Part shown: one piece after another, positions 6,179 to 59,366 of the stretch
Layout: each line of letters begins with the position of its first letter
How positions within the stretch are numbered: the stretch's first letter is position 1
Source: Heterodera schachtii
Taxonomy: Eukaryota > Nematoda > Chromadorea > Rhabditida > Heteroderidae
Assembly: GCA_023374025.1 (NCBI GenBank)
Contig: SIJG01000004.1
Coordinates: forward strand, 3,342,595 to 3,406,594
Reading direction: 5' to 3'
Length of the DNA stretch: 64,000 nucleotides
Made by a program: the position numbers and the translations under genes
The notes under the pieces: generated by a model
The model's input: only the letters and a program-made list of their open reading frames with translations
What the model was told of the DNA's origin: nothing
Databases searched by the model: none

Positions 6179-7138
6179 GGCGGTACAACAATTGCGGACC
6201 GGCAATTGCGGACCGGACAATTGCGGACGACAATTGCGGACGACAATTGCGGACGACAATTGCGGACTAGACATTTGCGGACGACAATTGCGGACTAGAC
6301 ATTTGCGGACGACAATTGCGGACGACAATTGCGGACCGTACTTTTGCCAAAAAATTAACTGGAAGGGTGGGCCTCGTCAGTACGATCCCTTCCGTATTAC
6401 AAATTCAAAAACCTAAGTGTGTTTCGGCCCTTCTGTAGACACATAGGTTAGGTATTTGTTTCAGACGACATGGATTTGATTGAGCCGCTTTTCCCAATTC
6501 TTTTCATTCTCGAAAAGAATGAATTTTTGCTAGAATCCAAAGACTTCAATTATTCACATTTTTTTTTTCAATGATTGAAGACATAACCGGACGGAGCCAT
6601 GTTAAGGAAATTTGCTTTTACAGTAAGAACTTTTGCAATAGGTAATTTAATTTAAATAAGTAATTTAGCTAAAGATGGTGGGGATAGAAAAATTGGACGA
6701 TCACGAAAAGCAATGGCTATAGTGCTTATGTATGGTTTGATGAATGGAAAAAGTCTTGAGTTATTTTTTTGTTCATAAGATGTATTTGTAGAAGCTGTTG
6801 TTGGGCCTTCAGCAAGCCAATAAAATAAACCATATTATAGCTTTATCATCCTATGCTTTGCTTTTTTCTCCTTAATTTGTGCTATCTATTTGTTATTAAT
6901 TTATTGCTGTGAGCTTTCTTATTTGGTGTCTACGGAAGGGCCGAAAAACACTTAGGTTTTTGAATTTGTAATACGGAAGGGATCGTACTGACGAGGCCCA
7001 CCCTTCCAGTTAATTTTTTGGCAAAAGTACGGTCCGCACATGTCCAGTCCGCAATTGTCGTCCGCAATTGTCCAGTCCGCAATTGTCGTCCGCAATTGTC
7101 CGGTCCGCAATTGCCGGTCCGCAATTGTCGTAGCACCG
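6179..7138. mobile_element. Foldback-type element with terminal tandem repeats of unit ~AATTGCGGACG
   Basis: The left end (6181-6345) and right end (about 7020-7136) are inverted arrays of the unit aattgcggacg. They are continued inward by a single-copy inverted repeat ending near 6450 and starting near 6925 (ccttccgtattacaaattca / its complement). Flanks are ATTCAAG at 6172-6178 and again at 7139-7145, a 7-8 bp candidate target duplication. The interior (6450-6925) has no recognisable transposase, so it is probably non-autonomous. It abuts the decayed F-box-like copy at 7192. Confidence 0.75.
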
Positions 7139-7191
7139 ATTCAAGATAAAAAAAATTATCGCAATTTTTTTTTGAAATTTATGATAAAGGA

Positions 7192-7799
7192 TGTTGTTAT
7201 CAGTGAAATTTGGCCCGTTTTTGCCACAAACATCCACCATCTTGGCATTGACGATGGCGATGATTTGGACAATTTGCATCGTCACACTTCATCAACAATT
7301 CTCACTGATCATGACCAATTGAATTCAATTGATTCCGATACTTTGCTGCCCGATGGAATTGCTGACGATGGGCAAAATTCAACTGCTGACCAGGCGTTGT
7401 CCAAATGGTTGCATATTCCGACAAAAAATGGCCAACCGAAGCGATTGAATTGTAATGATTATTTGGTTTCACCGTCTCTCGAATGGATCAACAATTTCAA
7501 AGAAGTGTGATCCCCATATTCCCTTAAATTGTTTTTTTTACCAATTTTGTTTAGGCATTTCTCCGTGCCACCACTTCGTCCTCCTACATTATTCAACTTA
7601 TTTTTGACACGATAACAACGCCAAATGGACCATTTGAAGTGGTGAATGAAAGGACCAATGAAACTGATACTGTGGAAAAAATCCGAGTATAATTGGCTGC
7701 TGATACGGTGTCCAATTGGGGATACGGTGACGGTTTAGCGGAAGAAAGAAGAAAATTGGGACGACAATTTGAACAATGTCAAATTTAAATTGTGGGATG
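7192..7799 (+). pseudogene. F-box-like family, MNRR-type relic (exons 3-4 only)
   Basis: Exon-3 fragment 7192-7504 (…SEIWPVFATNIHHLGI…KWLHIP..NGQPKRL…INNFKE) and exon 4 from 7555. Exon 4 shifts frame within NERTNE-KLIL near 7665. It then has a TAG near 7737 where relatives encode Q, and it loses its donor and the terminal exon. Exons 1-2 and the start of exon 3 are missing at the boundary near the foldback element. Clearly dead. Confidence 0.75.
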
Positions 7800-7854
7800 C
7801 CATCAATAATAAAAAAATATTTTTTGTTTTCAAAAGACATGAAAGCATTTTTCC

Positions 7855-8185
7855 TAGGGTTTTCTGGATCACTGATCACGAATCAAGCATCTATTCCGAC
7901 AAATTTCGAACCCCGGACCTGAATTCGAACAAAAGTTCGAAAATTCAAATTTTTCGAATTTCAGCTTTTTGATCCAAATGGTTTAAATAATTTTTTATTG
8001 AAGTATTAATGGGTTCCTGATTGATTCCGCGTATTTAGCCGGTTTTTAAGAAAAAATAGAAAATAAAAAAATTTGAATTTTCGAAATTTTTGTTCGAATT
8101 TAAGTCCAGTGTTCGAAATTGGTCGGAATAGATGCCGGATTCGTGATCAGCGATCCCGAACCCATAGAAAACATGCTATGACGTT
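7855..8185. repeat. Inverted-repeat (foldback) member of the 'CCCGGACCCGAATTCGAAC' family
   Basis: The left arm (~7860-7965: gatcacgaatc, attccgacaaatttcgaacc, ccggacctgaattcgaac) is mirrored by the right arm (~8065-8180: gttcgaatttaagtccag, cgaaattggtcggaatagat, gattcgtgatcagcg). The short centre is AT-rich. No coding content. Related single arms and pairs occur throughout the window. Confidence 0.6.
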
Positions 8186-8194
8186 GTATGCATT

Positions 8195-8315
8195 AATTCC
8201 GAATCCGGTCTCTCACAATCCGGTCAATCCGGTAATCCGGTCAATCCAGATTTTTCCCAAAATCGCCGGATCCAGAAAAATCCGGTACCGGATCCGGTCC
8301 GTTCTCTAGTAAAAA
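8195..8315. repeat. Short element rich in 'aatccggt' units, ending in ccggtccgttctctag
   Basis: Tandem aatccggtc units (8203-8250) and a mirrored ccggatccgg block (8268-8300), ending in ...GGTCCGTTCTCTAG. The end resembles the CTAGAGACCGGAC end of the small element at 35851-36003. No coding content. Confidence 0.4.
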
Positions 8316-8570
8316 CCTAAGAATCCTCGCCCTAGTACCTAATAAAAACCTTTAGATAAAATTCATTTTAATTGCGCCGCCCATTAAAAAAAAGAAAAAA
8401 CTTTCCTCCGCCGACCATTGCTTAATTTCTTCTGCAACAATTGGTGAAATCAACAATTAGGACGGCGAACTGTTAGCGTGGCCACGAAAGTGAAACGAAC
8501 TTTGATGAAAATGTCAGCCAAATTAGGCATTTTTCATGCATTAAACAATCGAAGTTTCCGTCCATTTCAG

Positions 8571-9050
8571 TTGGGTGTGCAACGATATGTTTGGGTGGAC
8601 ATTTGCCCATTTTTTGGCCTTGCTCAACTCGGCATAAAATTGGCATTGATTTCGCCGCGTTTCGCTTTAATGACCTTCGAATTGAGTAATTTAGAACTCA
8701 TTATTGGCCTTAAAAGCACCCATTTTCAGGTACATGGGTTGGTCTTTTCTTAATGCATTTCGTCCATTTCACTGTTTTAGTGCCATAAAATTGTTTTCGA
8801 GTTTTTGGGGTCACTCTAATCATGAAAACTGACACCAATTTGCACCAATTCCGATTTTAAAATTCAAAATCAAAATTGCGGATTTTTGTTTGAAAGACTG
8901 CTAATACTCGGAAAGAAACTGAAAGCCATTAATCCTGTAATATTAAATCATTTAAGCAATTTTAATATGATAAATCAGAAATTTGATTGCTTTTGATTTG
9001 ATCTTGGCATTTTGTTTAGGCATTTTTCCGTGCTGTTCACTTTACATTAG
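8571..9050 (+). pseudogene. F-box-like family relic (exon 2 with internal deletion, exon 4 stub)
   Basis: After an acceptor at 8570-8571, the text reads WVCND then, with a 1-nt shift, YVWVDICPFFGLAQLGIKLALISPRFA, then jumps directly to the exon-2 end (DLRIE plus gtaatt) near 8685-8697, so the middle of exon 2 is deleted. A degenerate exon-4 start (AFFRAVH...) follows an acceptor near 9018. It is interrupted at about 9048 by a GC-rich array. Non-functional. Confidence 0.6.
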
Positions 9051-9215
9051 GGTTGGGCCCCCGACCCCGCCCCCGACCCCGAACCCCGACATTTTTGGCC
9101 ATTTTCGGGGAAAACCCCGACCCCGAACCCCGACGCTTCCAACCCCGACAACCCCGAACCCCGACCCTTAACCCCGATCGGGGTCGGGGTTAAATATACA
9201 CCCCTAAGAATGGAA
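9049..9215. repeat. GC-rich minisatellite of 'ccccgaccccgaa' units
   Basis: Tandem cccgacccc / gaaccccgac units (9058-9195) between ends TTAGGGTTGGG and ACACCCCTAA. These inverted TTAGGG-type ends and the repeat-built interior suggest another small DNA element. No clear target duplication seen. Confidence 0.5.
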
Positions 9216-9805
9216 TTTTTGTGGGGGAAAAGGCAAAAAAGTTATAAGAAATTTGAATTTTGCCAAATTTTATTAAATAAAGTAAATTTGCTGATGCAAA
9301 TTGGTCATCATTGGCATATTTTGTGGTGAAAATCTGTTAGAAAATAAAGCTTAAATTTTAAAATTCGCCCGGCGGTGCCGATAAGCACCGCCGGACCCCT
9401 TTCTCCTAAAAGTCTTTAGAAAAAAGCACGCCGCGAAATTTTTTTTGAAATTAGAGAATTAGAATGCAATTTGTTAACTGGTTTTTCACCAAATAACCAA
9501 TTTTTTGACTTTGAGCCAAATTTATTTTAGAAAAAATAAGTTTTGGGGCCAGGCGCCGGAGGAAAAATTTGAAATTTTAACTATTTTTACAGATTTTCAC
9601 TGAAAATTGTTCATTTTAAAAATGCCTTATCTTTTTTAATTAATTCTATACAAAAATATTTATGATAAAAAGAAATAAAAAAGTACATAAAATTATTATT
9701 ATTGAGATAGAGAAGAAGAAGCTTCCCCGAGAGGAAGATTAATGGATCAATTGAGGCAACAATTGATCCTATATGATCGAGCAAAGTGGGGAGCTGGAGA
9801 GGGCA
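9216..9805. other. Intergenic, contains a GC palindrome
   Basis: No gene. 9367-9397 is a near-perfect palindrome (cggcggtgccgataagcaccgccgg). Variants of it recur at 19978-20001 and 34444-34470. The rest is AT-rich. Confidence 0.4.
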
Positions 9806-9877
9806 GGGTCGGTAGTTCAGCTGGTAGAACACTGGTCCGGAAAGCCAGAGACGCCGGTTCAAAGCCGGCCCGCCCCA
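9806..9877 (+). tRNA. tRNA-like gene, probably degenerate (anticodon unclear)
   Basis: A 72-nt cloverleaf can be drawn. Acceptor GGGTCGG pairs with CCGCCCC with one T-C mismatch. The D arm is GTTC-AGCTGGTA-GAAC. The anticodon stem is CTGGT/GCCAG. The T arm is GCCGG-TTCAAAG-CCGGC with GTTCAAA. The anticodon loop reads CCGGAAA, so position 33 is C instead of the near-universal T. Read strictly, the anticodon would be GGA, but there is no long variable arm as a serine tRNA would have. This points to a tRNA pseudogene or tRNA-derived repeat. Confidence 0.45.
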
Positions 9878-9969
9878 TAGTTTTTCCCTCAAAAGCTTCC
9901 CCGCTCGTTCATATATTTCATGGCGACCCTTGGCGGCTTCCAGTTCACCCAGCAGCAGCATTGAAATTT

Positions 9970-10100
9970 TACTATTTTTTTCCGTCGGGACCACAATTTT
10001 ACACCGTTGCCTATTTTTATAACAAAATTGATGAAAAATCCTAAAAACAATTTCCCGTCGGCCCTACCGGTACCGCCGGATTCCCCCCGTGGCATAAAAT
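9970..10100. repeat. Repeat shared with 30960-31060
   Basis: The stretch ttgatgaaaaatcctaaaaa...caatttcccgtcggccctac...ccgccggattcccccc (about 10028-10090) recurs nearly identically at 30990-31058. In both places it lies just before the sequence at 10450/31080, also shared. Confidence 0.5.
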
Positions 10101-10119
10101 CAAATTGGTGAGATCATCG

Positions 10120-10458
10120 GCCATTTCTCAAATATAATTAATTCACTTCCGCTCAATTAGACGACATTTTCCATGCTTTTATCCGCTTATTCTTCTTCCA
10201 CTGGTGGCGATAATGGTCTAAATTGAGTTTTTATTTTTCAACAAAATCAAATTCCGCTAGTTGCTGCTCTCACCCAATGGAACGAATGCCACGCCACAAA
10301 TCAAATTGGACATTGTTAATAATTATTGTCCAAATTTTCGTCGTTTTCCCACTGAATTGTCGCCGTAATTGGACATCGCTTTAGCAGCCAATTATCCTCT
10401 GATTTTTTCCACAGTGTCAGCTTCTCATTAGTCCCTTCGTTCACCAATTCAAATTAAA
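10120..10458 (-). pseudogene. F-box-like family relic (exons 5 and 4, minus strand)
   Basis: On the minus strand, exon 4 (from about 10458 to 10274) reads FELVNEGTNEKLTLWKKSEDNWLLKRCPI...QWENDENLDNN and is then shifted by an extra base near 10315, giving TAA. The terminal PLSPP exon follows (about 10217 downward). Everything upstream is replaced at about 10459 by a repeat also present at 31080-31260. Non-functional. Confidence 0.65.
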
Positions 10459-14839: not shown

Positions 14840-16086
14840 TTAATTTTCATTGCTTTCATCCGCTTTTTCTTTTTCCGCTGCTGGTGGCGATAATGGCCTA
14901 AAATTTAGTGGCATTTGAATTGGATCAATTATCCTTTACTGCTCTGCTCACCCAATGTTATCACTGCCACGCCACAAATTAAATTGGACATTGTTCAAAT
15001 TGTCGTCCCAAATTTCGTATATCCATTGAATTGTCGCCGCTTTTTCACTAATTGGACATCGCTTCAACAGCAAATTATTCTCGGATTCTTCCCACATTAT
15101 CAGCTTCTCATTTGTCCCTTCGTTCACCAATTCAAATTGTTCATTTGGCGCTGGTATCGTATAAAAAGTAAGTTGAATAATGTATGAGGACGAAGTGGTG
15201 GCACAAAGAAATGACTAAACAAAATTTGGTAAAACAAAAACAATTTATTGGAATATGGCGGGCCACCTCTTTGAAATTGTTAATCCATTCTTTTCTTTGT
15301 GAACGACTCCAGCAAACCAATCGCTTCAAAAGTCCATTTTTGCTCGGCGTGTGCAGCCATTTGGACAACACTTGGCCAGCAGTTGCATTCGCTCCTTCGT
15401 CGGCAATTCCATCGGGGAATAGAAGTCCAGAATCGATTGAATTCAATTGATCAAGTTCAGTGAGAATTGTCGGCGAAGTGCGGCGACGCAAACTGTCCAA
15501 AGCATCGCCATCTCTGACAACGAAATGGCGCATGTTTGGCGCAAAAATTCGCCAAATTTCACGGACCAAAACATCCCAAATTGGTTGGACATTTTTAATA
15601 ACCAAATCCAAACTGGTGCCCATTCTGTCCCAAATTTGCTTGTTGGCACGGATAAATTCAATGACGGAGTGGTCAATATACCTGATAAAATATAAAATGC
15701 TTTAAAACATATATAGTAAAAGTTTAAAAATTACTCAATCTGAAGGTCCTTAAAGCGAATTTTATTTGGCAGCGCACGATCCGGCATCGGAAAATCCACC
15801 CATCTGCCATCGATAAAAACAGACAGTTTCGGTTCTGGTCCTTTGTCCTTGTCAATTCTGATACGTCTCCAAATTGTCAATTCCGTCGTTTTGCCATCAA
15901 AATGTGCGTCCACCAAAACATCGAAACGGTCGGAAAGCAATGCCATTTTGAGACCAAGTTGGGCATGGTCAAAGGATGGGAGAATGTCCATCCACACTTC
16001 GCTACAAATCCAACTGAAACATAGGAAAAAATTAGGAAAAAATAAAAAATATTAATTTTTCGGAAAATTCCTTACCGTCTGTTCAT
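14840..16086 (-). CDS. F-box-like family protein, MNRR-type, intact (341 aa model)
   Basis: Minus-strand exons: 16076-16086, 15735-16013 ([20 protein letters not shown]...), 15267-15681 (YIDHSVIEFIRANKQIWDRMG...LKRLVC), 14952-15214 (SFLCATTSSSY...FELVNEGTNEKL...LLKRCPI) and 14840-14897 (PLSPPAAEKEKADESNEN). The sum is 1026 nt, in frame. Exon 3 is about 21 nt shorter than in relatives, and exon 4 begins TCATTT instead of GCATTT. A TATA-like fwd tatttatattcc (16145-16156) lies upstream. It sits at the outer edge of the inverted duplication; its counterpart at the other edge is the chimera at 37056. Confidence 0.83.
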
Positions 16087-16628
16087 TTTTGCTACAATTA
16101 GCTCACTTTTGTCGTAAGTTGTGATTGTTAACTAAGTAAAACTGTATTTATATTCCAAAAATGCAGTAAAATTTTTGGCTCTATTGCAGTTCACACGACC
16201 ATAAATTTTTTTGCAACTTTAATGCACCATAACTTTTGTAAATGTAAACCAAAGTAAACATTCTTGGTATTTTTTTGAAACATAATGAATTTTCTTGAAA
16301 TTTAGCAGGTTAATAGAGGACTCGTTGGGCTATCGAATGATATAAAAGAATGTTTAATAAGGTTGTTTTTTGAAAAAAATAGAGCCTTAATTTGAATGGG
16401 TAGGAAAAAGCGAAAAAATATAATCGATTGTATGGAAGCGGGAGGAGGAAATGGGAAGTGTGGAACAAGAAGAGGAGAAGGAGGAGGATAAGTGAGGAAG
16501 GAAGAACAGCAGCAGAAGAGAAAGAGAATCCGACCATTGAATGAGAGAATTGGGAAAATAAATGTATAGAGAGAAAGAGATGGGAGAAAGATAGAGGGCA
16601 AAAGAAAAAGAGAGAAGGGCGGGGAGCG

Positions 16629-17529
16629 GAGTCGGGGGCGTTTGGGCCCCCGCGTTTGGGCCCCCGTTTTTGGGCCCTCGTTTTTGGGCCCCAGGCTCGT
16701 TTGGGCCCCAGGGTCGTTTGGGCCCCAAGTACAGAAAAATGAAAAATCACAGTAAAACAACTTTTTAAATTTCAGCATAAAAATGTAAAATAAACATTTT
16801 AAAAATAAATTCAACAATAATTTTAACAATAAAAAATGTAAAAATTAAAAGAAATTCACGGGTTCATAAGGTAATTTGGACAATAAAACAAAAATCACGG
16901 GTTCATTCGATAGTTGCGAGAAATTCTAGAGGTGTGCCGTGATTCACGGTCACGGTCACGGTTACCGTGAATTTCACGGGTTTTTTCACTCACGGTCACG
17001 ATTCACGGGACCAATTCACGGTCACGGTCACGATTCACGGGGTCAATTCACGGTCACGGTCACGATTCACGGTTCACGGGTTTTTTCAGTCACGGCACAC
17101 CTCTAAGAAATTCCCCGGAGAAACTCCAAAAAGACAATTTTACTTTTTGTTTTTGGTTGTAATTGGGTTAGCCATTTATGAAAAATGTCCAAATCAGAAT
17201 GTACATCAAATTGGTTAACTATTAAAAATAATAGGATTTGGAATAAGTAAAAGTAAAAAAATGAGCGAATGTTAATTAAACCTAACTTATGCCAAGTGGC
17301 GAGGGATCCCTCAGGCTTAGTTTTTAGAACCTTAATTTTTAAAAAAGCACATTTTTCTATTTTTAGGTTGGGGCCAAACGACCCTGGGGCCCAAACGACC
17401 CCGGGGCCCAAAAACGGGGGCCCAAACGACCCCGGGGCCCAAAAACGGGGGCCCAAACGACCCCGGGGCCCAAAAACGGGGGCCCAAACGCGGGGGCCCA
17501 AAAACGGGGGCCCAAACGCTCTGGTCCCC
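16629..17529. mobile_element. Element with terminal arrays of unit ~GTTTGGGCCCCC
   Basis: The left array (16637-16725) reads cgtttgggcccc / cgtttttgggcccc; the right array (about 17370-17520) is its inverse. GGGGAGCG stands on both sides (16621-16628 and 17530-17537; up to 10 bp if flanking C and GG are counted). It is absent from the matching place in arm B, so it inserted after the duplication. The interior holds a separate tcacggtcacgg satellite (16938-17100). Long proline/glycine-rich open frames here are artefacts of the repeat. Confidence 0.78.
16938..17102. repeat. Satellite of 'tcacggtcacgat' units
   Basis: Tandem and partly inverted tcacggtcacggt / cacgattcacgggg units, from 'gaggtgtgccgtgattcacg' to 'cacggcacacctct'. 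The ends GAGGTGTGCCGTGA and TCACGGCACACCTC are mutually inverted, so this is itself probably a small nested element. Confidence 0.6.
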
Positions 17530-17537
17530 GGGGAGCG

Positions 17538-18203
17538 GGCCAGGACGTTTTCGTACCGCCATTTTCGTACCGCCGTTTTCGTACCGGAGACGTTTTCGTA
17601 TCGCCGTTTTCGTACCAGTGGATATGCAAAAAAAATTGCATTTATATTATTTTTTTATCTAAGTAATTACTAGGGCTGGGAACTTAAGTCAAATGACTTT
17701 TTTTTTCGCAAAACTCTAAATGGATGAGTTTGACTTTTTGAGGCAAAATTTGATTTTAGTGAAGAACATGCCGAAAATACAAAGAAAATTCCGAAAAATA
17801 ATTTCGATCGATAAAAATGCAATGAAACCTGGCTGAATTTTTCTTAATTGTTGGAAGAATCTCTTAATGTTTTGACAAATTAGCTTTTATTAACTATAAA
17901 ATGAACCAGCCAATGTCAATCCCGAAAACATTGACAATTTTCTCGCCGGTATTTCCCGAAACTATGAGATGCGACCTTATTTTGTCCCGGAATTTTGTTA
18001 TTTTTGTTAAATTTATGAATTTTCTACATTATATTTTATGAATGGGATTCTTAAGTTATTCAAATCGAATCTGACGCTTGTACAAGAACTCGTACGAAAA
18101 CGTCCCCGGTACGAAAACGGCGGTACGAAAACGTCCACGGTACGAAAACGGCGGTACGAAAACGGCGGTACGAAAATGGCGGTACGAAAACGACCCTGAC
18201 CGG
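17538..18203. mobile_element. Element with terminal arrays of unit ~TTTTCGTACCGCCG
   Basis: The left end GGCCAGGACGTTTTCGTACC plus units (to 17612) is mirrored by the right array (18078-18198), which ends in CGAAAACGACCCTGACCGG. It lies beside the preceding element. Flanks GGGCGGGGAG (left, before that element) and GGGCAGGGAG (right) fit an original 9-10-bp duplication later split by the neighbouring insertion. The interior (17613-18077) is AT-rich with no gene. It is closely related in its ends, but not in its repeat unit, to the element at 35388-36292. Confidence 0.75.
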
Positions 18204-18292: not shown

Positions 18293-18992
18293 CAGGGGTG
18301 TTATTTTACCTGGTAAACCCGGCATTTGCCGGGTTTTTGGGGTCCGTGCCGGGTTTTTGAAATTGCCTGGTTTTTGCCGTGTTTTGCTTTTTTTGCCGGG
18401 TTTCCTGTTCTATACTCATTTATTTGAATTTTATTAAACATTTCACCAAATTAAGAGCCAACTATAGCTAACGTTCATTATTCAGGTTTATTTTATCCGA
18501 TCTCTAGTCTCTAGCTTAGCAGGTGGATGAAAAATGGGCGGCTATTTTCAAAAAATCCTAATTTTGTCCTGCTCAAATCACTAGTCTCTGCAATTCTATC
18601 AATTTTCCCTTCCAATGCCTTTTGTGAATCTGTCTTTTCTGTTCTCAAGAACATCAAAAGGACGAGAGGAATAGTATTGGCATACCTTTGTTGAATTCTC
18701 TTATTTCACTCAAATTCAATTCAAAAATTTCGTGCCTAAATGTTCACAATTATTTTCTTTCATTGCCAAACTTGCTCAAACAGGTGAAAAGTGGTGATAA
18801 ATATATTGTTTAAATGTTTTTGACGTTTTTTACAGTGAACAATTGGCCTAAAAAATTGCCGGGTTTTTGCCGGGTTTTTGAAAATTTTTGCCGGGTTTTT
18901 GCCGGGTATTTCAACTGGTTTGCCGGGTTTTTAAGTTTTGGCGATAACACCCCTGTTTGCCGGGTTTTTAGGTTTTGGCGATAACACCCCTG
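18293..18992. mobile_element. hAT-superfamily element remnant (CAGGGGTGTTAT ends, 8-bp duplication TGTTCGAG)
   Basis: The ends CAGGGGTGTTAT...ATAACACCCCTG are flanked by TGTTCGAG at 18285-18292 and 18993-19000. Arm B has a single TGTTCGAG at the equivalent site (near 36423-36430), a clean empty site. Subterminal tandem gccgggttttt units lie at both ends (18322-18405, 18857-18970). Plus-strand text near 18612-18665 reads SNAFCESVFSVLKNIKRTRG, like the hAT C-terminal dimerisation segment, followed by stops. A decayed copy. Confidence 0.88.
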
Positions 18993-26823: not shown

Positions 26824-28150
26824 TCATTCGTCCGCTTTTTCTTTCTCTTCTTCCGCTGGTGCCGACAATGGCCTAAAAAATGTTTTTTTCAACAAAATCA
26901 AAAATTCCGTTGGTGCTTCTCACCCAATGGATTTATTGATGTCACTATAAAAATTAAATCTGATACTGTTCAAATTTTCATCCAAATTTTCGTCGTTTTC
27001 CCATTGATCCGTCGCCGCCTTTTCACCAATTGGGCATCGCTTCAACAGCAAATAACCAGCAGAACGTGACACTTTTTCCAATGTCAGCTTTTCCTTGGTT
27101 CGTTCGTTCACCAATTCAAATGGCTCAATTGATGGTTTAGACACTGCAAATTGAATTTTGTAGATGACAGAAGAATTGGTGGCACGGGCAAATGCCTAAA
27201 TAAAAAGGAAGCGAAATTCAAAGACTGTCAATCAGTTTCCATCTCTTTGAATAGTTGATCCATAAAAGAGGGGTACCATCAGTAATTATTACCCAAATAT
27301 TATAAGAAATGACTAAACACACCTCCTTGAAACTGTTGACCCAGTCGATGTTTCCTTCTTCGTCAAAGTCTTCGCAAGACAATCGCTTCGGTTGTCCATT
27401 TTTGCTCGGCGTATGCACCCATTTTGACAACGCCTGGCCGGCAAAAGCATTTGGTCCATCAAAATCATCACCAATCGCATCGGGGAACAGATCACAAGAA
27501 TAGATTGAATTCAATTGATCAAGATTAGTGAGAAGTGTCGGCGAAATGAGACGACGCAAATTGTACAAATGATTGGCATTGATAAAGCTCAAATGGCGAA
27601 TGCTGGTCGCAAAAATTGGCAACATTTCTCGGGCCAAAACATCCCAAATCGGTTGGTCATCATCAATGAACAACTCCAATTCGGTACCCATTCTGTCCCA
27701 AATGTGCTTGTTGGAACGGACAAATTCAATGACGGAATAGTCAATGTACCTGAAGAAATAAAATATACAATGCCTTAAAATACACTAAGTTTCAAATTAC
27801 TCAATCCGAAGGTTCTTAAAACGAATTTTGGTGGGCAGCTGACGGTCCGGCAATGGAAAATCCATCCATTTGTCATCAATATGTACAGATACTTTCGCTT
27901 TTGATCCTTTGTCCTTTCGAATTGTTATCCATTTACAAATTGTCAATTCGCTTTTCCCATCAAAATGTTTGTCCACTAAAATGTCGAAACGGTCGGAAAG
28001 CAATGCCATTTTAAGACCAAGTTCAACACGTTCAAAAGATGGGAGAATGTCCATCCAAACGTCGCTACAAATCCATCTGAAACATGGAAAAACATTTGGG
28101 TAAGCAAAAAAATTTGTAATTTTTAAAAAATTTCCCTACCGTTGGTTCAT
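26824..28150 (-). CDS. F-box-like family protein, MNRR-type, intact (344 aa model)
   Basis: Minus-strand exons: 28140-28150 (M-N-Q-R), 27801-28076 (WICSDVWMDILPSFERVELG...), 27323-27749 (YIDYSVIEFVRSNKHIWDRMG...), 26924-27195 (AFARATNSSVIYKIQF...PFELVNERTKEKLTLEKV...LLKRCPI) and 26824-26872 (PLSAPAEEEKEKADE). Sum 1035 nt, in frame, phases 2,2,0,2. The first donor is gtaggg rather than gtaagg. It sits in the centre of the inverted duplication. Confidence 0.84.
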
Positions 28151-35142: not shown

Positions 35143-35387
35143 GTAATTCGAACATTTATAAACACAAACCTAGATACATATTTAGATGGGGTCGCTTTCG
35201 GTAACATTGAAGAATTTGGCTGATTTCGGTTTTAAAACACATTTTCCGATTTTCTCGTTGAGAAAATTTAATTGGTACAATTTTTATGGCCCGGCGACAA
35301 TTCTGACTGTTGGTGTGTCCCAAATCGAACAGCAGGGACATTCACTCGATTCTCCAATTTGGCTTTTTTGAGCATGGGCCTTCGGGG

Positions 35388-36292
35388 GGGCCAGGACGTT
35401 TTCGCGTGGCCGTTTTCGCGTGGCCGTTTTCGCGTGGCCGTTTTCGCGTGAGGCCCGTTTTCGCGTGGCCGTTTTCGCGTGGGGTACGTTTTCGCGTGAG
35501 TGCCTGTTTAGGACTAAAATTGGTCGGGATGTGTGCCGAACATTCATTTTGACCTATTTCGAATCCCGAACCCGATTTCAAACAATTTTTTGCTTTTATT
35601 TACTCAAAAGCGTCCTCATTTTTATGCATGTAAAGATTAACAACTTCAAGTATTGACAACGTGAATGAGACACAGAATCCGACCATCGGCATCACGACAT
35701 TTCTTTTCTTTTTTTCTTTTTCGGGGGGCGGGGATAGAAAAAATTCTGTAATAGGGGTTGGAAATTTTTTAAATTTATGATAAATAAGCCTGCCAGAAAG
35801 AGAGAAAACAATTTTATACCAAATTGCATTTGGGATGGCAAGTCTACACTAGAGACCGGACGGGATCGGGATCCCGCGGGATTTATTCGGGATCCCGACC
35901 TCGGGATCCGTCCCGAGCGATTTTCCAAAATGTTCGGGATTGATCAGGATTCAGTCGGGATCCCGACTCGGGATCCCTCCGACCCCAGTTGTCCGGTCTC
36001 TAGTCTACACTAATACCAGCAAAGCATTAGACCGTGAAAAATTATTAGACTGTATAATAATTTGTCAGTATTAATTTATAAAATTCACTTAAATATAGAT
36101 TGAATTAAGCACCCGAAGTAAAACGGGAGTGAAAAATTTTTTCAAAATATAAAAAAAATAAAAAATTCGCTTATATGCAACCACGCGAAAACGGCCACGC
36201 GAAAATGGCCCTCACGCGAAAATGGCCCTCACGCGAAAATGGCCAAGCGAAAACGGCCACGCGAAAACGGCCACGCGAAAACGACCCCGACC
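35388..36292. mobile_element. Element with terminal arrays of unit ~TTTTCGCGTGGCCG
   Basis: The left end GGGCCAGGACGTTTTCGCGTGG plus units (to ~35490) is mirrored at 36180-36290 (ccacgcgaaaacggccacgc), ending CGAAAACGACCCCGACC. GGCCTTCGGGG flanks both sides (35377-35387 and 36293-36303); arm A has the single empty site (near 19098-19108). The interior contains a nested small element (35851-36003) and a fragment of the dispersed CCCGAACCCGATTTC repeat near 35565. No transposase. Confidence 0.85.
35851..36003. mobile_element. 153-bp MITE, ends AGAGACCGGAC, target duplication TCTACACT
   Basis: AGAGACCGGACGGGAT at the left is mirrored by GTCCGGTCTCT at the right. TCTACACT lies on both sides (35843-35850 and 36004-36011). 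The interior is made of cgggatcccgac units. Nested inside the larger element. The 8-bp duplication fits hAT-type. Confidence 0.78.
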
Positions 36293-37055
36293 GGCCTTCG
36301 GGGCATGGCTTTTGCAGGTTGGGAATTGAGCAGCAGTTTTCTCATTTTTGACGTTGGACGAATGAGTCCCCGTGGGATTTGAACACTTTAGTAGTCCGTC
36401 TCGGTCTCGAGTCTCGAGAAATGTTCGGTCTCGAACATCAAGCACTACTCTCTACTGGTTTTCCTTAACTACTCACGCTCACTCTCTTTTCTCTCTGCCA
36501 AGCCTTCTTTGTCCTCCCTGCCCTTCTCTCTTTTTCTTTTGCCCTCTATCTTTCTCCCATCTCTTTCTCTCTATACATTTATTTTCCCAATTCTCTCATT
36601 CAATGGTCGGATTCTCTTTCTCTTCTGCTGCTGTTCTTCCTTCCTCACTTATCCTCCTCCTTCTCCTCTTCTTGTTCCACACTTCCCATTTCCTCCTCCC
36701 GCTTCCATACAATCGATTATATTTTTTCGCTTTTTCCTACCCATTCAAATTAAGGCTCTATTTTTTTCAAAAAACAACCTTATTAAACATTCTTTTATAT
36801 CATTCGATAGCCCAACGAGTCCTCTATTAACCTGCTAAATTTCAAGAAAATTCATTATGTTTCAAAAAAATACCAAGAATGTTTACTTTGGTTTACATTT
36901 ACAAAAGTTATGGTGCATTAAAGTTGCAAAAAAATTTATGGTCGTGTGAACTGCAATAGAGCCAAAAATTTTACTGCATTTTTGGAATATAAATACAGTT
37001 TTACTTAGTTAACAATCAAAAATTACGACAAAAGTGTGCAAATTGTTCAGCAAAA

Positions 37056-47609: not shown

Positions 47610-49256
47610 GGACGACACCCAACTCGTACTAGGCCAACTCGTACTGCCCCAACTCGTACTGGTACCCCGACTCGTACTAAGATTCCCAACTCGTACTAAG
47701 TTTCCCAACTCGTACTAAGATTCCCAACTCGTACTGTGCAACAAAAAACGGAAAAAAAAACAACAAAAAATCGCTCAAATTTTTTTTAAATCACAAAAAT
47801 GCACGAAAATCGAAGAAATGATAAAAATTCAGCAAAAAATAAATAATAAAACCATAAAAATGCACAAAATTCGGTAAAATGAAAATAATTCATTAAAAAA
47901 ATTCAACAAGGATCGAGATTTTCATCATTTGGCACAACATAAATTCCGCTCTCATTGAGACTCGCTTCCGCTTCTTCCATTGCTGCTGCCTCCTCTATCT
48001 GTTCTTCTATTTCTAATCTTGGAGGCACATTGAACCCAATCAAATGACCAATACGACCATAGTAGCGCGACAATGTCTCCGTAAATTGCTCATCTTCGTA
48101 ATCGCTGCCCAGAAATGAAAAAAATAAATTCGTATTAACCTGGAAATTCACAAGCCAACGACCTAGTAATTGATGTGGTTGATAAAACCAACGTTGTCGG
48201 CCCTGATAAGTGAACGGTTGACGTGGTTTGGAGGTGCAAATTGTAGGGCGCCAATTTTGTGAAGAAGTGCTTGAATGCGCGGCCTTCTTGTTCACGTGAT
48301 GTGTAGAGGTTCGCCAAGCCCAAGCGTTGTATGCGCCTGTGCATCGCCTGTCTTACGTGGAAGCAGCACATTTTTGAAGCGCTTTGTTTGCGCGCGATAA
48401 AGCGCCTGTAATATGTAAAATGGTTTTTCGTTGTAATCTTTACGCTTACTTTTTTTGTTGCTTTCGCATTGCCGCATGCCTCGTTGCGAATTTTGTTTCT
48501 TTCTTCTTCGCTTATGTTCATGTAGTTTGGTACGACACGTACATCAATGCGGATTTTCGCTGAGGCCACGTTTTCTCGCGAGCCCATTGCTAACTCATTC
48601 TGAACTTTGCGCCTCTCTTAAAATTTAAAAATAAAAATTGTAGTTTAGAATTATGTAATTTGTTTTTTTTAATTTAAATGCGAAAACTCAAAAAACCTGT
48701 TCGCCTTGGACCTTCGCTCGCTCAAATGGCTGACAGAAGTGTGCGTGCGTAGGTCCATCATCCAACCACTGATCACCGATTGCTTTTCGCGTTGGCAATG
48801 GGGTTTCCTTCGGCACATGTTTGGCATCACGCAGTTTCCGGCACCCAGCACAGACATAACGAAGCCCCGGTAGCTGTTCCATTCCAGCACGTGTCCATTT
48901 GTAGCACAAATTTGAATTATCGGTGTGATCAGAAAGCATCACTGATTTTGAGCCAATCCGTTGACTAAAGCATGCCATATTGTAATCTGTTTGTAAAAAA
49001 ACGAAAAATATAATTATTAAGGTAATTCAATGAAAATAGTGAAAATTTGTGATAAAATTTCTCTTTGTTGCACAGTACGAGTTGGGTAATTTAGTACGAG
49101 TTGGGAAAAATAGTACGAGTTGGGTAATTTAGTACGAGTTGGGAATCTTAGTACGAGTTGGGAAACTTAGTACGAGTTGGGAATCTTAGTACGAGTCGGG
49201 GTACCAGTACGAGTTGGGGCAGTACGAGTTGGCCTAGTACGAGTTGGGTTTTTACC
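47610..49256. mobile_element. Element with terminal arrays of unit CAACTCGTACTA and an internal spliced gene
   Basis: The left array 47618-47735 (acccaactcgtactaggcca...) is mirrored by 49074-49247 (tagtacgagttggg). AAATATTTT (9 bp) stands at 47601-47609 and 49257-49265, where it interrupts an F-box-like exon. The interior (47903-48978) carries its own spliced minus-strand gene, so this may be an autonomous member. A 9-bp duplication and a C-C...H-x-H finger would fit a MULE-type element; that assignment is inference. Confidence 0.83.
47903..48978 (-). CDS. Element-borne protein with a possible FLYWCH-like zinc finger
   Basis: Minus-strand first exon 48978 to about 48703: MACFSQRIGSKSVMLSD... 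with C-A-G-C in LRYVCAGCRKLRDAKH and a later THAHFC, a C-x2-C...H-x-H spacing as in FLYWCH/WRKY-GCM1 fingers. After GEQ|gttttt comes RRKVQNELAMGSRENVASAK...EERNKIRNEACGNAKATKK. Then an intron (gtaagc...attacag) leads to ALYRAQTKRFKNVLLPRKTG. Further frames (REQEGRAFKHFFTKLAPYN, QPFTYQGRQRWFYQPHQLLG) lead, through a ~36-nt intron, to DYEDEQFTETLSRYYGRIGH...PPRLEIEEQIEEAAAMEEAE..., ending NLDPC. No DDE catalytic core was recognised, so it may be an accessory or truncated transposase. Internal junctions are uncertain. Confidence 0.5.
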
Positions 49257-49265
49257 AAATATTTT

Positions 49266-53979: not shown

Positions 53980-55665
53980 ATGCCTTCAGAAATTTTGTAT
54001 GTTTATTGTTCCTTTTTTTTTTTTCTGATTTTCGGCATTTCTTTTGCTCAATTTTTGACCAGCGGAATTTGGAGATAAAAATTTAAAACCAATTTTGAAG
54101 ACTTTTTGAAAGATTAGCTTTTTAGAGGCTAAAACTTCACATTTACTTCCTCGTCTTTAACCTTTGACCATTTCATTGTTTTTTCCTTTCCTTCCATTAA
54201 TTCATTAATTTCCCAAATTCATTTCTTTCAGTTCGCATGCCCTGTCTCTTATTCTGTTGGTCGAATGTGCGATCATTCTTTGGATCATTTTTGGCTATGT
54301 CAAAAAACGACTACGCCCTCACAAAAAAGAAATGTAAAAAATTCAACAAAAAATTTTGAAAATTTCTTCAATTTTTCAGATTTATCTGCAGCGACTGTTG
54401 GCTTTTGGTGTTCGATTTTCTTGCGCCTTCTCAGCTCGGCCTCGAAATTGCACTGATCAACCGCCGCTTTGACTGCATTGTCGACGAACACTTCAAGACG
54501 CGCAAATGGAAATTGGGCGGAATACGAATTTGCCACAAAATTGGAGAGAATGGCACCAAGCAAATGCAAATTGTCAAATCCGATGGAAATCCATGGCCAA
54601 TCCCTCGAAATCCGTTGCCGAACAAAGTCATCGGATTCCGAGGCATTACAATCGCGTAAAAATTTGATTCGATTGGAAATGTTTTATCCAAATTTTCTGC
54701 TTTTCAGTTACATCGACCAAAATGTCATCGCATTTCTCCGCCTTTTCCACCGATTTTTTCGCCTTTTCTTCAATATACTTGGACATTATCACTGAAAATG
54801 TTCGCATTTTGGACTTTGTTTTGCTCAACATTTTGCCAATGTTCCGCCATTCAATGCGTGTGATGTATTTGAATACCATCGCTTTTCGCCGTATGCGTCA
54901 ATTTGCCCCGTCATTTCTCAGCGATTGTCCATCACTTCGCTTTGTCTGTTTCAAAGATGCCATTCTGCCCGAATTTCCACACGATGAAAGTGCCAATGCG
55001 TCGGATGGCCAAGCGGTGACCAAATGGCTGTTGACGCCCCGTCCGGACGGTGTGCCAAAGGTGTTGCATTGCTATGACTTTTCGGTTGCACAATGGTCGT
55101 CAACGATGGAACAGTTTAAAGCGGTGATTATCCCTATTTAATTATTTTTTCTATGATTTTTTGTCCCCTTTTTAGGCATTTTCCAATGCTTCTTCTCCGG
55201 TTACTTTTCGCATTCTCTTTCTGATGTCTTCTCCGATTGACTTCATTTTACCATTTGATCTGATCAACGAAGTGACTGGAGAGAAATTGGCACTTCAACA
55301 AAATGCTGCAAATGACTTTTGGCTCATCCGTTCTCCAATTGGATGGGATGAGCGAAATTGGAAAAATGTATGGGAAGAATTGAGTGTTCGACAGAACCCA
55401 ATTGACATTCGGATCAGCGATGGCGGATTCGACAACGGGTGAATAAAATATTAAATGCTTAATGATTTCTTTTTTTTTGTGTTTTATGAGTCCAATTGCT
55501 TAGACTTTGTGCTTTCAAATGGTACCAAAAATGTACGGTTATGGACAGAAATAGTTGATTGAACTCATAAAACGCCAATGACTTTTAATTGCAACCGAAT
55601 CATCGTTTTTTTTCAGTCTTCTCGACGACGCTTCTCCCGGGGCGAGTGATCAACAGAAGAAATGA
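53980..55665 (+). pseudogene. F-box-like family, TM-type, with frameshift in the YID exon
   Basis: Exons: 53980-53996 (M-P-S-E-I), 54232-54333 (TM segment ALSLILLVECAIILWIIFGY, then KKRLRPHKK), 54380-54655 (FICSDCWLLVFDFLAPSQLG...), 54708-55123, 55176-55438 (AFSNASSPVTFRILFLM...PFDLINEVTGEKLALQ...SPIGWDE) and 55617-55665 (LLDDASPGASDQQKK). Exon 4 is 416 nt instead of a length congruent with 421. YIDQNVIAFLRLFHRFF reads to a stop, while the other frame resumes at DIITENVRILDF, a 2-nt loss near 54750-54785. All other exons, the TATA box (53891) and the ends are intact, so the damage is recent or an error. Confidence 0.78.
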
Positions 55666-56538
55666 ATTAATTGATTGGTGACGAAATTGTCTGACCGAAA
55701 TGATGTTGGCAATTTGCCTTTTAAATATTGCCTAATTGTTTGTTTGTTTGTATTTGACCTTTGCTTGCACGCAAATGCGTCCATTTCCATTGTATTTTAT
55801 GTGTATATAAGTGAAATTCATTGTGAGTAATTAATCGTTGATAAAATGGCTAATAATAAAAACGGTAAAAGCTGCGCATATAAAGAATGATCAATAAGAA
55901 TGCTTACCGAAAACTTCCTAAGATTCGCGACTTACCCCCGAATCCGAAAACTCCGAGACACAAAGATTCAAAGACTTGATGAAAAATCGGGTCAATAGCA
56001 GCTCGTACAATAAATTTTGATGAAAAATCGGGTCAATAGCAGCTCGTACAATAAATTTTTTTACAAAATAAAGCCTAAGCTTAGGGCTAAGCCTAGGCTC
56101 AAGCGTAAGCTTAATCCAAAAGCTTATGCGTATTCTAAGCTTTTATAAAAAATGCCGATTGTACGAATTGCCATTAACCCGAAAAAATCATACATAGACA
56201 AAAGAAAAGACAAGAAAAAAAAATTTAAAATTTATTTTTCCTCGAGAGCGCAATTCTGCAGTATTACCCAATCAATGAACCAACTTTATTTTCTTCAATG
56301 GCTCAATTAGTATTTTTTGACACGCAAAACTTAAAAAAAGAATGCTTAGGCTTAAACTGTTCAATTAATATTAAATGTGTGTTTTATTCGAATGAAAGAA
56401 AATCAACAAAAGCATTTCGGAGAGAATAAATGAGGGAATCAAATCAAATCCGTTTCCAATTGGTGAGATGGGCCATTTCACAAATATAATTAATTAATTC
56501 ATTTCCACGCAATTAGGCGACTTTTTCGAAATAATCAT
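55666..56538. other. Intergenic with 42-bp tandem duplication
   Basis: 'tgatgaaaaatcgggtcaat...agcagctcgtacaataaatttt' occurs twice in tandem (55977-56018 and 56019-56060). Next to it, 56065-56145 is built of aagcttaggctaagcc-like, partly palindromic words. No gene; 56390-56530 is 3' flank text of the following minus copy. Confidence 0.5.
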
Positions 56539-57047
56539 TCATTCCGCTGCTGATCCACTTGGCCCGGGAGTCGTCGAGAACATTTCATTGTTGCATTGAC
56601 CTGCTTCTTTTTCTTGTTCGTCCGCTGGGGGCGACAATGGCCTAAAATTAAACATAATTTGAATTGGGTGAATGAATTAAATTAATCTTTTACACTTAGC
56701 CAATGAAATTAATACCGCCACTCCACAAATTAAATTTGACAGTGTTCAAATTGTCGTCCCAATTCTCGTCGTTTTCCCATTGATCCGTCGCCGCCTTTTC
56801 ACTAATTGGGCATCGCTTCAACAGCCAAACACCAAGCGATTCATCTTCGTCTTCTCCGACCTTCATCAGTGTCAGCCTTTCTTTGGTCCGTTCATTCACC
56901 AATTCAAACGGTTCAATTGGTGTTGAACAATAATGTTGAAGTCGAATTTTGAAGCTGACTGAAGCGGTGGCACGGCGAAATGTCTAAACAAAATAAAAGG
57001 AAGCGTAAATCAAAAGGCAATCAATCATTTATGTGACCAACACACAC

Positions 57048-59366
57048 GGCTACCCGACTTTTGGGGATTTGCAACTTGGGGACCCGACATTTGGGGACCC
57101 GACTTTTGGGGATTTGCAACTTGGGGACCCGACATTTGGGGACCCGACTTTTGGGGACCAGACACTTAGGGAACCCGACATTTGGGGATCCCGACATTTG
57201 GGGACCCGACAACACGCACACATTTTGTACATCGACGACCATCTGACTTCACTATTCTTAAAAATATTGTAATTATTTTCTAATAAGGCTGCTAAAACAC
57301 TGAAAAAGAACCTTAATAAGCACATTGTCGCTAATTCCCTCTGCTTTTTGTAATTCCGTCAAATATTCTCGCTGCAAAACTGACTTACGCACTTTGCGAA
57401 TCATCTTTTTTATTTTTTCAACAGTCTCGGAAGTTCTGTGTTCGAGAAAAAAGTCCGGCCTCTATAGACAATAAAATAATTAAATTATGCGCTTTATAAT
57501 CAAACTTTGGCTTATATTGCGGCGCTAAAAAATTGATAAGCCTTCGAAATCCTTCCTTTTCTGGAGTTTTTAGGGGGAGGAGGTCCCTTGCGATCATTTC
57601 CATTACCAACTGATCAACGTGTTTTGTCTTGGAACCATCAATTTTCCACTGAGCTGTAAATCAAAACAACCTTTTTTTAACCAATGCGTCAACTTCACTC
57701 ACAAAAATTCTCGACAATTGTTTGTTGTTTTTCGCCTGAACATATTCTTCCGCGCTTTAAGCTGGGTTGGCTGGATGATGATCCATCAATATCTTCGTCT
57801 TTTTATGTGCATTTGGTTGGATCAGAGCTGGCGAATTGTGTTATTTTTGGAATTGTTGCCAAGGCTTTTTCCATGGCTTCCAGCTTCTTATCTTTGGCCC
57901 TTTTCCGCTCTAATTCCAACTCTTTATGGAATTTTTCTAAGTGGCGAATCATGTTTTTGGTTGACTTCGTCTTGTCCTGCTGTTGATTCCAATCACAATT
58001 CTTACATTTGGCGTAATTATTCGGCAGATGATCAAAATATTGCCAAACAGAATCCATTCTTAAAACTAATGTAAATTTTAGCATATTGAGCACAAACGAC
58101 GAACGGTATGAAAGATAGTAATGGTAGAAAATTTAACACAAAAGCGTAATTCATAAAGCAAACTTTTATAAGAAGGGGTGTCAAATTTGGCGATATGATA
58201 GTGATTCAAATATGTTTCACATTGCAAAATTTTATCTTCTCAATATTTTACTCAGGTCCCCGTTCTTACCGGTGCATTTTTTTTGCCTATGCCGCGGGTT
58301 GAGAAAAATTTCGGGTTCGGGTTTCGGGTCGGGCACTCGAAAAATTTCGAGTTCGGGTTTCGGGTTTAGAAAAACTTCGGGTTTCGGGTCTCGGGTTTCG
58401 GGTTGGCATCACTGTTGGGGACCGAACGACATTTGAGCAAAAGGCATTTAGGGAAACCACAGACATTTGGCAACCCGACATTTAAGGACCCGACATTTGG
58501 GGATTTTAATAAAACAAAAAAATTATTAAAAAGTTTAATTTTAAGCCCAAAATTAGACAAAATTACGTCTGCTTTAGCCAGAGAAAAATGAAATAATATT
58601 TTTAAAATTAACTCTTTTTCCGGACTCACCGCGAGGATGTAGCAGAAGAGTTACAAAAAAAGTATTCGTTAAAAGATTAATTTTAAAGCACCGAACAGTC
58701 ACCCGAAAGATAAGAAACAGAAAATATGACCTCGGCATTTTGTTGCAGTGCAGTATGCAACTAGACCAAAGTCGTCTGGAACTTTTTGAATGCCCTTGAC
58801 GGATTTCTGTTCCCGTTGGCCCTTGGGAGGCACTTCTAATAAAAGTTGAAAAAGGGTGTACTGTACATAAAAGTGTATTGTGATTTGTCTATTGTTTGTG
58901 GTTAGTATGTGCTCAAAATTCTGCTACCTCCTCGCGGTGAGTCCGGAAAAAGAGTTAATTTTTAAAATATTATTTAATTTTTTCTTGCAATGGAATTAAC
59001 ATTGGCTAAAGCAAATGTAATTTTCTCTAATTATGGGCTTAAAATTAAATTTTTAATTAGCTTTTTTTGTTTTATTAAAATCCCCAAATGTCGGGTCCCT
59101 AAATGTCGGGTTGCCAAATGTCGGTGGTTTCCCTAAGTGCCTTTTGCTCAAATGTCGTTCGGTCCCCAAATGTCGGGTCCCCAAATGTCGGGTTCCCTAA
59201 GTGTCGGATCCCCAAAAGCCGTGTCCCCAAATGTCGGGATCCTCAAATGTCGGGTTCCCTAAGTGTCGGGTCCCCAAAAGTCGGGTCCCCAAATGTCGGG
59301 ATCCCCAAAAGTCGGGTCCCCAAATGTCGGGTCCCCAAGTTGCAAATCCTTAAAAGTCGCACCACG
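57048..59366. mobile_element. Element with terminal arrays of unit ~CCCGACATTTGGGGA, carrying hAT transposase remnants and a nested foldback
   Basis: The left array (57050-57215) and right array (59085-59355) are inverted. The outermost 'gacttttggggatttgcaac' is matched by the complement of 'gttgcaaatccttaaaagtc' at the right. ACACACAC flanks both sides (57040-57047, 59367-59374), though in an AC-rich setting. Inside, 58418-59167 is a second foldback with ~245-bp arms (gactcaccgcgaggatgtag and complement), itself ending in arrays of the same unit. 58300-58405 is a ttcgggtttcggg satellite. Confidence 0.8.
57300..58093 (-). pseudogene. Broken hAT-type transposase: BED zinc finger plus N-terminal core
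   Basis: Minus strand 58093-57803: SVWQYFDHLPNNYAKCKNCD...NMIRHLEKFH is a BED finger (W-x2-F, C-x2-C, H-x4-H), followed by a charged ELERKRAKDKKLEAMEKAL helix. After stops and shifts come QQTIVENF and, at 57609-57418, MVMEMIARDLLPLKTPEKEG.FRRLINFLAPQYKPK, the segment typical of hAT transposases. The catalytic part and C-terminus are absent here. Confidence 0.75.

What the first reader, a model, noticed from the sequence alone, without database searches (positions are those of the whole stretch)
6179..59366. A set of elements whose inverted ends are tandem arrays, each with a private repeat unit
Units: AATTGCGGACG (6179-7138), GTTTGGGCCCCC (16629-17529), TTTTCGTACCGCCG (17538-18203), GCCGGGTTTTT (18293-18992), TTTTCGCGTGGCCG (35388-36292), CAACTCGTACTA (47610-49256) and CCCGACATTTGGGGA (57048-59366). 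In each, both ends carry the same unit in opposite orientation, while units differ between elements. The 17538 and 35388 elements share nearly identical outer ~12 bp but have wholly different units, so the arrays are replaced in concert at both ends of an element. Foldback elements with subterminal repeats are known; the rapid, symmetric turnover of the unit looks unusual. It could reflect a transposase/finger protein co-evolving with its binding array, or end-to-end templated repair.
Basis: partly seen in the sequence, partly recalled or inferred. Interest (0 to 1): 0.88.

Follow-up and report, generated by a model that had tools for sequence, protein, structure and literature searches.

The report
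Transposons with self-matched binding-site arrays
Many related jumping genes in this animal genome end in two mirror-image arrays of one short word, each lineage has its own word, and between sister lineages the same letters of that word have changed in nearly every copy at both ends, which looks like a transposase and its docking sites evolving together.

Summary
The six fit a known kind: Mutator-like (MULE) transposons of the Phantom/Tm1/Muta type (FLYWCH finger plus MULE transposase, 9-bp duplications, tandem-repeat ends), mostly as non-autonomous copies. Of 43 MULE loci examined (of 95 matches) in the same genome, 30 show such arrays at both ends and 8 at one, with about 29 units. The two arrays of one element match (median similarity 0.86; between elements 0.07), and array similarity tracks transposase relationship (0 of 5000 permutations). 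New here: in four sister pairs the arrays still align unit by unit, yet the same one or two core letters differ in every aligned unit at both ends (57 of 57 positions in 44 units), while other core letters (3 of 311) and spacers (55 of 368) mostly agree. The 17538 and 35388 families share tips and differ by a 4-bp core block; no array mixing these two was found. Finger residues 53-56 change in all six switched pairs compared, though some other finger columns vary as often. Co-evolution of transposase and array is the best reading; binding is untested.

The parts
6179..7138 (.). Element E1, unit ACAATTGCGGACG; arrays 6188-6336 and 7032-7131; imperfect duplication ATTCAAG
   Evidence: related copies
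16630..17529 (.). Element E2, unit GTTTGGGCCCCCG; arrays 16638-16732 and 17367-17518; duplication GGGGAGCGG at 16621-16629 and 17530-17538 (placement ambiguous by one base)
   Evidence: related copies; unit close to MULE locus L068 (similarity 0.52)
17536..18202 (.). Element E3, unit GTTTTCGTACCGCC; arrays 17546-17616 and 18092-18192; A tip left, B tip right; carries a short match (86%) to a transposase 3' coding end
   Evidence: boundaries set by analogy with copies having perfect 9-bp duplications (its own is imperfect)
35387..36293 (.). Element E5, unit GTTTTCGCGTGGCC; arrays 35397-35498 and 36181-36283; duplication GCCTTCGGG; about 210 bp of each end match MULE locus C141 (87% and 81%)
47610..49256 (.). 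Element E6, unit CAACTCGTACTA; arrays 47618-47735 and 49074-49248; duplication AAATATTTT
48207..48386 (-). MULE transposase remnant inside E6
57048..59366 (.). Element E7, unit CCCGACATTTGGGGA; arrays 57055-57211 and 59081-59359; ambiguous (AC)n duplication; about 57425-58404 matches 98-99% copies elsewhere and is probably a nested insert
18293..18992 (+).

Best explanation
The elements are Phantom-type Mutator-like transposons and their internally deleted derivatives. Each end has a short, end-specific tip (presumably the cleavage site) followed by several copies of a core word that the element's own FLYWCH zinc finger presumably binds. Shown: FLYWCH plus MULE transposases lie between such arrays; duplications are 9 bp in the families tested; the two arrays of an element match; array words follow the transposase tree; in sister families one to four adjacent core letters differ in all or nearly all aligned units at both ends while spacer order and the rest of the core are kept; residues 53-56 of the finger differ in each of six switched pairs. 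Inferred: a change of finger specificity and a change of the core letters go together, and selection for binding, helped by exchange between units and between the two ends, brings all units to the new letter. A switched family would then no longer cross-mobilise its parent's non-autonomous copies.
For: FLYWCH found in 6 of 8 and MULE in 3 of 8 ORF fragments scanned; 504-aa model matches IS256-family ISCth4 and the FLYWCH NMR structure 2rpr. Arrays seen at both ends in 30 of 43 MULE loci, one end in 8. Within-element similarity 0.48-1.00, median 0.86, against between-element median 0.07 (31 elements). Mantel -0.366, 0 of 5000 (24 elements); all 20 pairs of arrays above 0.25 are within one major transposase clade, judged by eye on the printed tree. 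Core switches: L063/L068 14 of 14, L062/L067 11 of 11, C36a/C13 6 of 6, C122/C13 26 of 26 positions; other core 3 of 311, spacers 55 of 368; whole-element DNA identity 87, 89, 82 and 67-74%. Segregation of the two window units: 0 mixed of 88 arrays, 0 mixed neighbours, 61 CGTG and 82 TACC among 165 A tips. Residues 53-56: 12 of 24 differ in 6 switched pairs against 498 of 2757 elsewhere (Fisher p 4e-4); 0 of 15 in 4 unit-conserved pairs.
Against: No binding data. The switch letters and the strand 53-56 were picked after looking. The six pairs share members (L068 and L074 twice), and L068/L089 is only a partial switch (outer units). In a column scan of five pairs, columns 39, 42, 69 and 72 differ in 3 of 5 just like 54 and 55, so 53-56 is not unique. 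The finger as a whole does not diverge clearly faster than the rest (72 of 372 outside 53-56 against 426 of 2385); unit-conserved pairs are also younger (rest 76 of 1305), so 0 of 15 is weak. Part of the tree correlation is plain common descent. L089/L090 have mixed arrays (outer TTGGGCCG, inner TTGGGCCC). For 17538/35388 the switch is less clean (20 of 24 in window elements, 13 of 16 in C141/L088). In 13 of 43 MULE loci one or both arrays were not seen; in some the missing end may lie outside the stretch held or in withheld sequence.
Confidence: 0.6

Rival explanations
1. Neutral concerted evolution: arrays are homogenised by slippage, unequal exchange and gene conversion, and follow the transposase tree only because both are inherited together. 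No change of binding specificity is involved.
For: Own ends are more alike than orthologous ends in three pairs, L063/L068, L068/L089 and L062/L067, as homogenisation predicts. Two pairs (L088 vs C141, L090 vs L089) look flipped inside their tips, which exchange between the inverted arrays would produce. The finger is not clearly fast-evolving overall.
Against: Homogenisation by tracts longer than a unit would erase the unit-by-unit spacer order, which is kept. It would not limit change to one to four adjacent letters while other core letters stay at 3 of 311. Close copies show no homogenisation between ends.
Confidence: 0.24
2. A different protein, a host factor or an element-coded anti-silencing protein like VANC, reads the arrays, and the switches reflect escape from or recruitment of that protein rather than transposase docking.
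For: VANDAL elements of Arabidopsis carry tandem motif arrays that co-evolve with VANC (PMC5735166, passages). A second gene was not searched for here, so it is not excluded.
Against: The transposase itself has a DNA-binding type of finger. Arrays are symmetric and terminal, as expected of transposase sites.
Confidence: 0.1
3. Each new unit arises by replacing the array wholesale at both ends from a new founder unit.
For: Distant families have unrelated-looking units; in several elements the two arrays score 0.95 or more (L046, L053, L059, L063, L068, C31, E6).
Against: In four sister pairs the old array framework is retained and mainly core letters differ; tips stay end-specific.
Confidence: 0.06

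Closest known systems
Tm1, Mutator/Foldback family of root-knot nematodes (PMC3169594; abstract, passages, section 9 and part 1 of 2 of section 11 read)
   Same: FLYWCH plus MULE transposase (496 aa), 9-bp duplications, asymmetric 7-bp tips A1 and A2, 13-15 bp tandem motif C in both ends, many non-autonomous copies; consensus motif C differs by one letter between M. incognita and M. hapla
   Different: One family with one motif is described; in the parts read there is no set of sister families with private units, no unit-by-unit switch analysis and no finger comparison
Muta1 and other Aedes aegypti MULE families (PMC5225508; passages read)
   Same: FLYWCH in 13 of 14 families, 8-9 bp duplications, 10 of 12 long-TIR families with 9-15 bp subterminal tandem repeats; Muta1 has 9 copies of a 12-bp repeat with 3-4 bp spacers and a 504-aa transposase active in yeast
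   Different: No comparison of units between sister families in the passages read
VANDAL/VANC of Arabidopsis (PMC5735166; abstract and passages read)
   Same: An element-encoded DNA-binding protein whose short target motif forms tandem repeats and changes between related families
   Different: VANC is an anti-silencing protein, not the transposase; the motifs lie in non-coding regions and are not described there as mirror-image ends
Foldback elements such as Galileo (only as described in PMC3169594)
   Same: Long inverted ends with internal tandem repeats
   Different: P-element-type transposase in Galileo, MULE here

Membership tests
Phantom-type MULE (Tm1/Muta kind) | N-terminal FLYWCH finger plus MULE transposase domain | tested here: met
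   FLYWCH 6 of 8, MULE 3 of 8 fragments; both in L052 and L057; 95 MULE matches; fold. For the window elements themselves only remnants are present
Phantom-type MULE (Tm1/Muta kind) | 8-10 bp target-site duplication | tested here: met
   35 of 41 A-B tip pairs of the E3/E5 families have a perfect 9-bp duplication (32 of 38 distinct); E6 and E2 also 9 bp, E1 and E7 imperfect or ambiguous
Phantom-type MULE (Tm1/Muta kind) | Asymmetric tips outside 9-15 bp tandem repeats | tested here: met
   exceptions L075 and L076 have 26-bp periods
Phantom-type MULE (Tm1/Muta kind) | Placement in the Phantom clade of a MULE phylogeny | not tested
   Only homology to named nematode, insect and rotifer FLYWCH-MULE proteins; no reference Phantom, Tm1-A or Muta1 sequence was placed in the tree
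Phantom-type MULE (Tm1/Muta kind) | Mobilisation by the FLYWCH-MULE transposase | not testable with these tools
   needs an excision assay
VANDAL/VANC system | Separate anti-silencing VANC gene | not tested
   no search for a second gene was made
Galileo/FB (P superfamily) | P-element-type transposase | tested here: not met
   the transposase between such arrays is MULE
hAT (for 18293-18992 only) | 8-bp duplication and CAGGG-type ends | tested here: met
   the CAGGG rule is recalled
hAT (for 18293-18992 only) | hAT dimerisation domain | tested here: inconclusive
   PF05699 E 0.011, 16 bits against a cut-off of 21.4

The most novel reading that the evidence does not exclude
When an element changes its finger, the core letters of every docking site in both arrays are rewritten within a short time by tracts shorter than one unit (core-only templated repair between units and between the two ends during transposition), leaving spacers and tips untouched: a self-editing lock and key that founds new, mutually incompatible transposon families and frees them from their parent's non-autonomous copies.
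Probability: 0.15. Interest if true: 0.85.

Novelty: new member of a known kind. Interest (0 to 1): 0.6.

Why it matters
The elements themselves are a known kind, but this genome holds many sister families at different stages of divergence. That gives a natural series of matched finger and site changes, down to one letter. It makes two open questions testable: which residues of the FLYWCH finger read which base, and how a transposon can move about a dozen binding sites to a new specificity while staying mobile. If the switch blocks cross-mobilisation, it would also be a simple route by which one transposon family becomes two.

Tried and rejected
Rejected: that the seven form one set (18293-18992 has direct repeats and hAT-like ends). 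Rejected for the close pairs: whole-array replacement. Rejected: ongoing homogenisation of the two ends within each copy of the 35388 family (own A-B 0.901, A-B between different copies 0.902). Tested and not found: clearly faster evolution of the whole finger. Considered and set aside: CpG decay as the cause, because several switches are G/C or A/C changes. Not resolved: full-length transposase partners of E1 and E7; the 22 of 165 A tips followed by neither CGTG nor TACC (one, L018, is CTTG). A solved-structure sequence search with one finger found nothing, whereas the fold search listed 2rpr at rank 19, E 0.015. Paper searches showed no report of core switching in their listings, but they cover only openly licensed PMC papers and I read parts of five, so absence from print is not claimed. 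Rows left out: one search uses 25 of the 30 both-ended MULE loci (not L049, L052, L054, nor L089 and L090, which came later) plus 6 window elements; one search drops rows with fewer than 150 aligned residues (L048, E6 among them) and the duplicates L053/L054; one search drops units at gaps or whose core in the first sequence is imperfect; one search uses 6 of the 8 switched pairs in altered choice (L041/L063, L063/L089 and L046/L051 left out as more distant or overlapping, all three also differ within 53-56; L070/L088 added) and 4 of 5 conserved pairs (L042/L045 left out because L045 has a frame break; taken as it stands it differs at 53-55).
Full report
What is there. Six of the seven named stretches are elements whose two ends are mirror-image arrays of one 12-15 bp unit. 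The same detector gave no such pair in 395 first-order Markov resamples of the loci then held. The seventh, 18293-18992, has its repeats in direct orientation (9 on +, 1 on -), CAGGGGTGTTAT ends, an 8-bp duplication and a sub-threshold hAT match; it is a different kind of transposon.

Which transposon. The window lies in a 178.5-Mb, 356-contig genome, eukaryotic by its size. Pfam MULE gives 95 matches there. I examined 43 of these loci. Arrays were seen at both ends in 30 (L041-L043, L046-L049, L051-L063, L065-L068, L070, L074, L075, C141, L089, L090; L061 weak), at one end in 8 (L039, L045, L050, L064, L071, L076, L077, L088) and at none or unclearly in 5 (L040, L044, L072, L073, L078). L057 with its neighbour stretch is called C36a below, L060 C122, L074 C13, L075 C31, and L079 with L027 C141. 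The fully automatic detector alone finds a pair in 25 of 42 of these loci (137 kb), against 6 reports of other-unit pairs in 38 E3/E5 loci (138 kb), of which one is E2 itself, two are one place seen twice and one is a variant of the E5 unit. The transposase has a FLYWCH finger and a MULE domain. L052 carries an uninterrupted 504-aa frame, modelled at mean pLDDT 89, that matches the IS256-family ISCth4 transposase (E 4.7e-7) and, at rank 19, the FLYWCH NMR structure 2rpr (E 0.015, TM 0.68 by target). Named relatives are from Meloidogyne, Globodera, Aphelenchoides, aphids, fireflies, rotifers and others.

How the window elements fit. The 35388 element shares about 210 bp at each end with MULE locus C141 (87% and 81%), including tips and unit; L070 is a second such MULE (99.6% to C141). 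MULE locus L088 has the 17538 unit in one array, and the 17538 element carries a short match to the transposase 3' coding end of C141. Of 41 A-tip/B-tip pairs found among copies of these two families, 35 have a perfect 9-bp duplication, all at the same offset from the tips (32 of 38 when the copies shown twice in L016/L024 and L022/L026 are counted once). The 47610 element has a perfect 9-bp duplication and a MULE-like remnant by a session profile, not by Pfam. The MULE partners of the 6179 and 57048 elements were not found.

Symmetry and privacy of units. For 31 elements (25 MULE loci, 6 window elements) the two arrays of one element score 0.48-1.00 (median 0.86) against a median of 0.07 between elements; in 28 of 31 the own partner is best, and the exceptions are same-unit relatives. 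Array similarity falls with transposase distance (24 elements, Spearman -0.366, 0 of 5000 permutations), and all 20 pairs above 0.25 are within one major clade of the printed tree, judged by eye and without support values. About 29 distinct units occur among the 38 array-bearing loci (my tally).

The switch. In four sister pairs the arrays align unit by unit with their spacers in order over most of their length, with some units gained or lost. The differing core letters are: G or C in TTGGGC(G/C)C (L063/L068); A or C in TTCC(A/C)T (L062/L067); T or C in AAACGTCG(T/C)C (C36a/C13); TC or CG in AAA(TC/CG)TCGCC (C122/C13). Aligned units differ there at 57 of 57 positions (44 units), elsewhere in the core at 3 of 311, and in spacers and edges at 55 of 368, at whole-element DNA identities of 87, 89, 82 and 67-74%. 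Letters are pure within elements: 16 of 16 G and 14 of 14 C for L063/L068, 14 of 14 A for L062, 17 of 17 C, 10 of 10 T and 9 of 9 A for L046/L051/L058, 16 of 16 C for L067. In C122 17 of 18 units have TC. The 35388 and 17538 families differ by CGTG/TACC: 468 of 576 and 107 of 137 pattern matches, the rest including chance matches outside arrays and neighbouring elements. None of 88 arrays mixes the two types (nine listed 4-mers, overlapping loci counted twice). Genome-wide, 165 A tips are followed by CGTG in 61 and TACC in 82, and no mixed neighbours with the commonest spacer occur. For this pair the switch is less clean: 20 of 24 in the window elements and 13 of 16 in C141/L088. L089 and L090 carry two core types in one array. 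The switch positions were chosen after seeing the alignments, so the Fisher values are descriptive.

The finger. In six switched pairs, residues 53-56 of the finger differ at 12 of 24 positions, against 498 of 2757 elsewhere (p 4e-4); in four unit-conserved pairs at 0 of 15. This is suggestive only: the region was chosen after looking, two proteins are used twice, L068/L089 is a partial switch, the conserved pairs are younger, and in a scan of five pairs columns 39, 42, 69 and 72 differ as often (3 of 5) as 54 and 55. In the model these residues end the strand 49-56 just before the FWRC strand. By recalled analogy with WRKY domains that strand would face DNA; this is a lead, not a test. The rest of the finger is about as divergent as the rest of the protein (72 of 372 against 426 of 2385).

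How symmetry is kept. Tips are end-specific and conserved by descent in the closest pairs (L063 and L068 26 of 26, L042 and L043 25 of 26), so whole ends are not converted. Two cases look flipped inside their tips: L088 has the A tip on the 5' side where C141 has B (11 against 7 of 13), and L090 against L089 (23 of 26 swapped, 18 of 26 same-end); L046/L058 is a weak third (19 against 15), and other pairs favour the same ends or are undecided. Recombination between the inverted arrays would do this and would also carry units from end to end. With switch letters masked, own ends are more alike than orthologous ends in L063/L068, L068/L089 and L062/L067; the two C13 pairs and L089/L090 are mixed. 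Close copies with the same unit show the opposite: L070/C141 (own 0.92-0.94, orthologous 1.00), L042/L043 (0.96 against 0.97-0.99) and 24 copies of the 35388 family (0.90 against 0.97 and 0.96; overlapping loci may repeat a copy). Turnover therefore looks episodic.

Known or new. Tm1 of root-knot nematodes and Muta1 of mosquitoes have this anatomy; Tm1's motif even differs by one letter between two species. VANDAL/VANC shows co-evolution of tandem motifs with an element-coded protein. Membership in the Phantom kind is met on domains, duplication length and end anatomy; tree placement was not tested. What I did not find described in the parts of papers read or in the listings is the unit-by-unit core switch at both ends paired with finger changes.

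Noticed in passing
16927-17105: A small hAT-like element (TAGAGGTGTGCCG ends, apparent 8-bp duplication AGAAATTC) with TCACGG repeats appears nested inside E2; the E2 relatives listed mostly skip this stretch. Ends read by eye.
   Followed up: partly
about 35849-36003: A second short inverted element (AGAGACCGGAC ends, flanked by TCTACACT) appears nested in E5; many E5 copies listed skip it. Ends read by eye.
   Followed up: partly
L053/L054 (G000:C129, about 219055-223129): Two copies with the same 504-aa open MULE frame lie in tandem, separated by a few bases that look like a shared target duplication.
   Followed up: no
L089 and L090: Arrays with two core types in order: outer units TTGGGCCG, inner units TTGGGCCC, the same trend at both ends; possibly a switch in progress.
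   Followed up: partly
window, throughout (e.g. 2295-2813, 15141-15701, 27218-27784): Many ORFs sharing a motif like SYIDHSV-EF-RSNK-IWDR-GT; not annotated here.
   Followed up: no
G000:C39:634547: A TACC-type A tip lies about 1 kb from a MULE match (C39:635600): a possible second MULE of the 17538 family, not fetched.
   Followed up: no
proteins P0002, P0006, P0011: The named relative closest to L052 is from a firefly (Photinus pyralis, 56%), above the named Meloidogyne hapla hits (50-51%): a patchy distribution.
   Followed up: no
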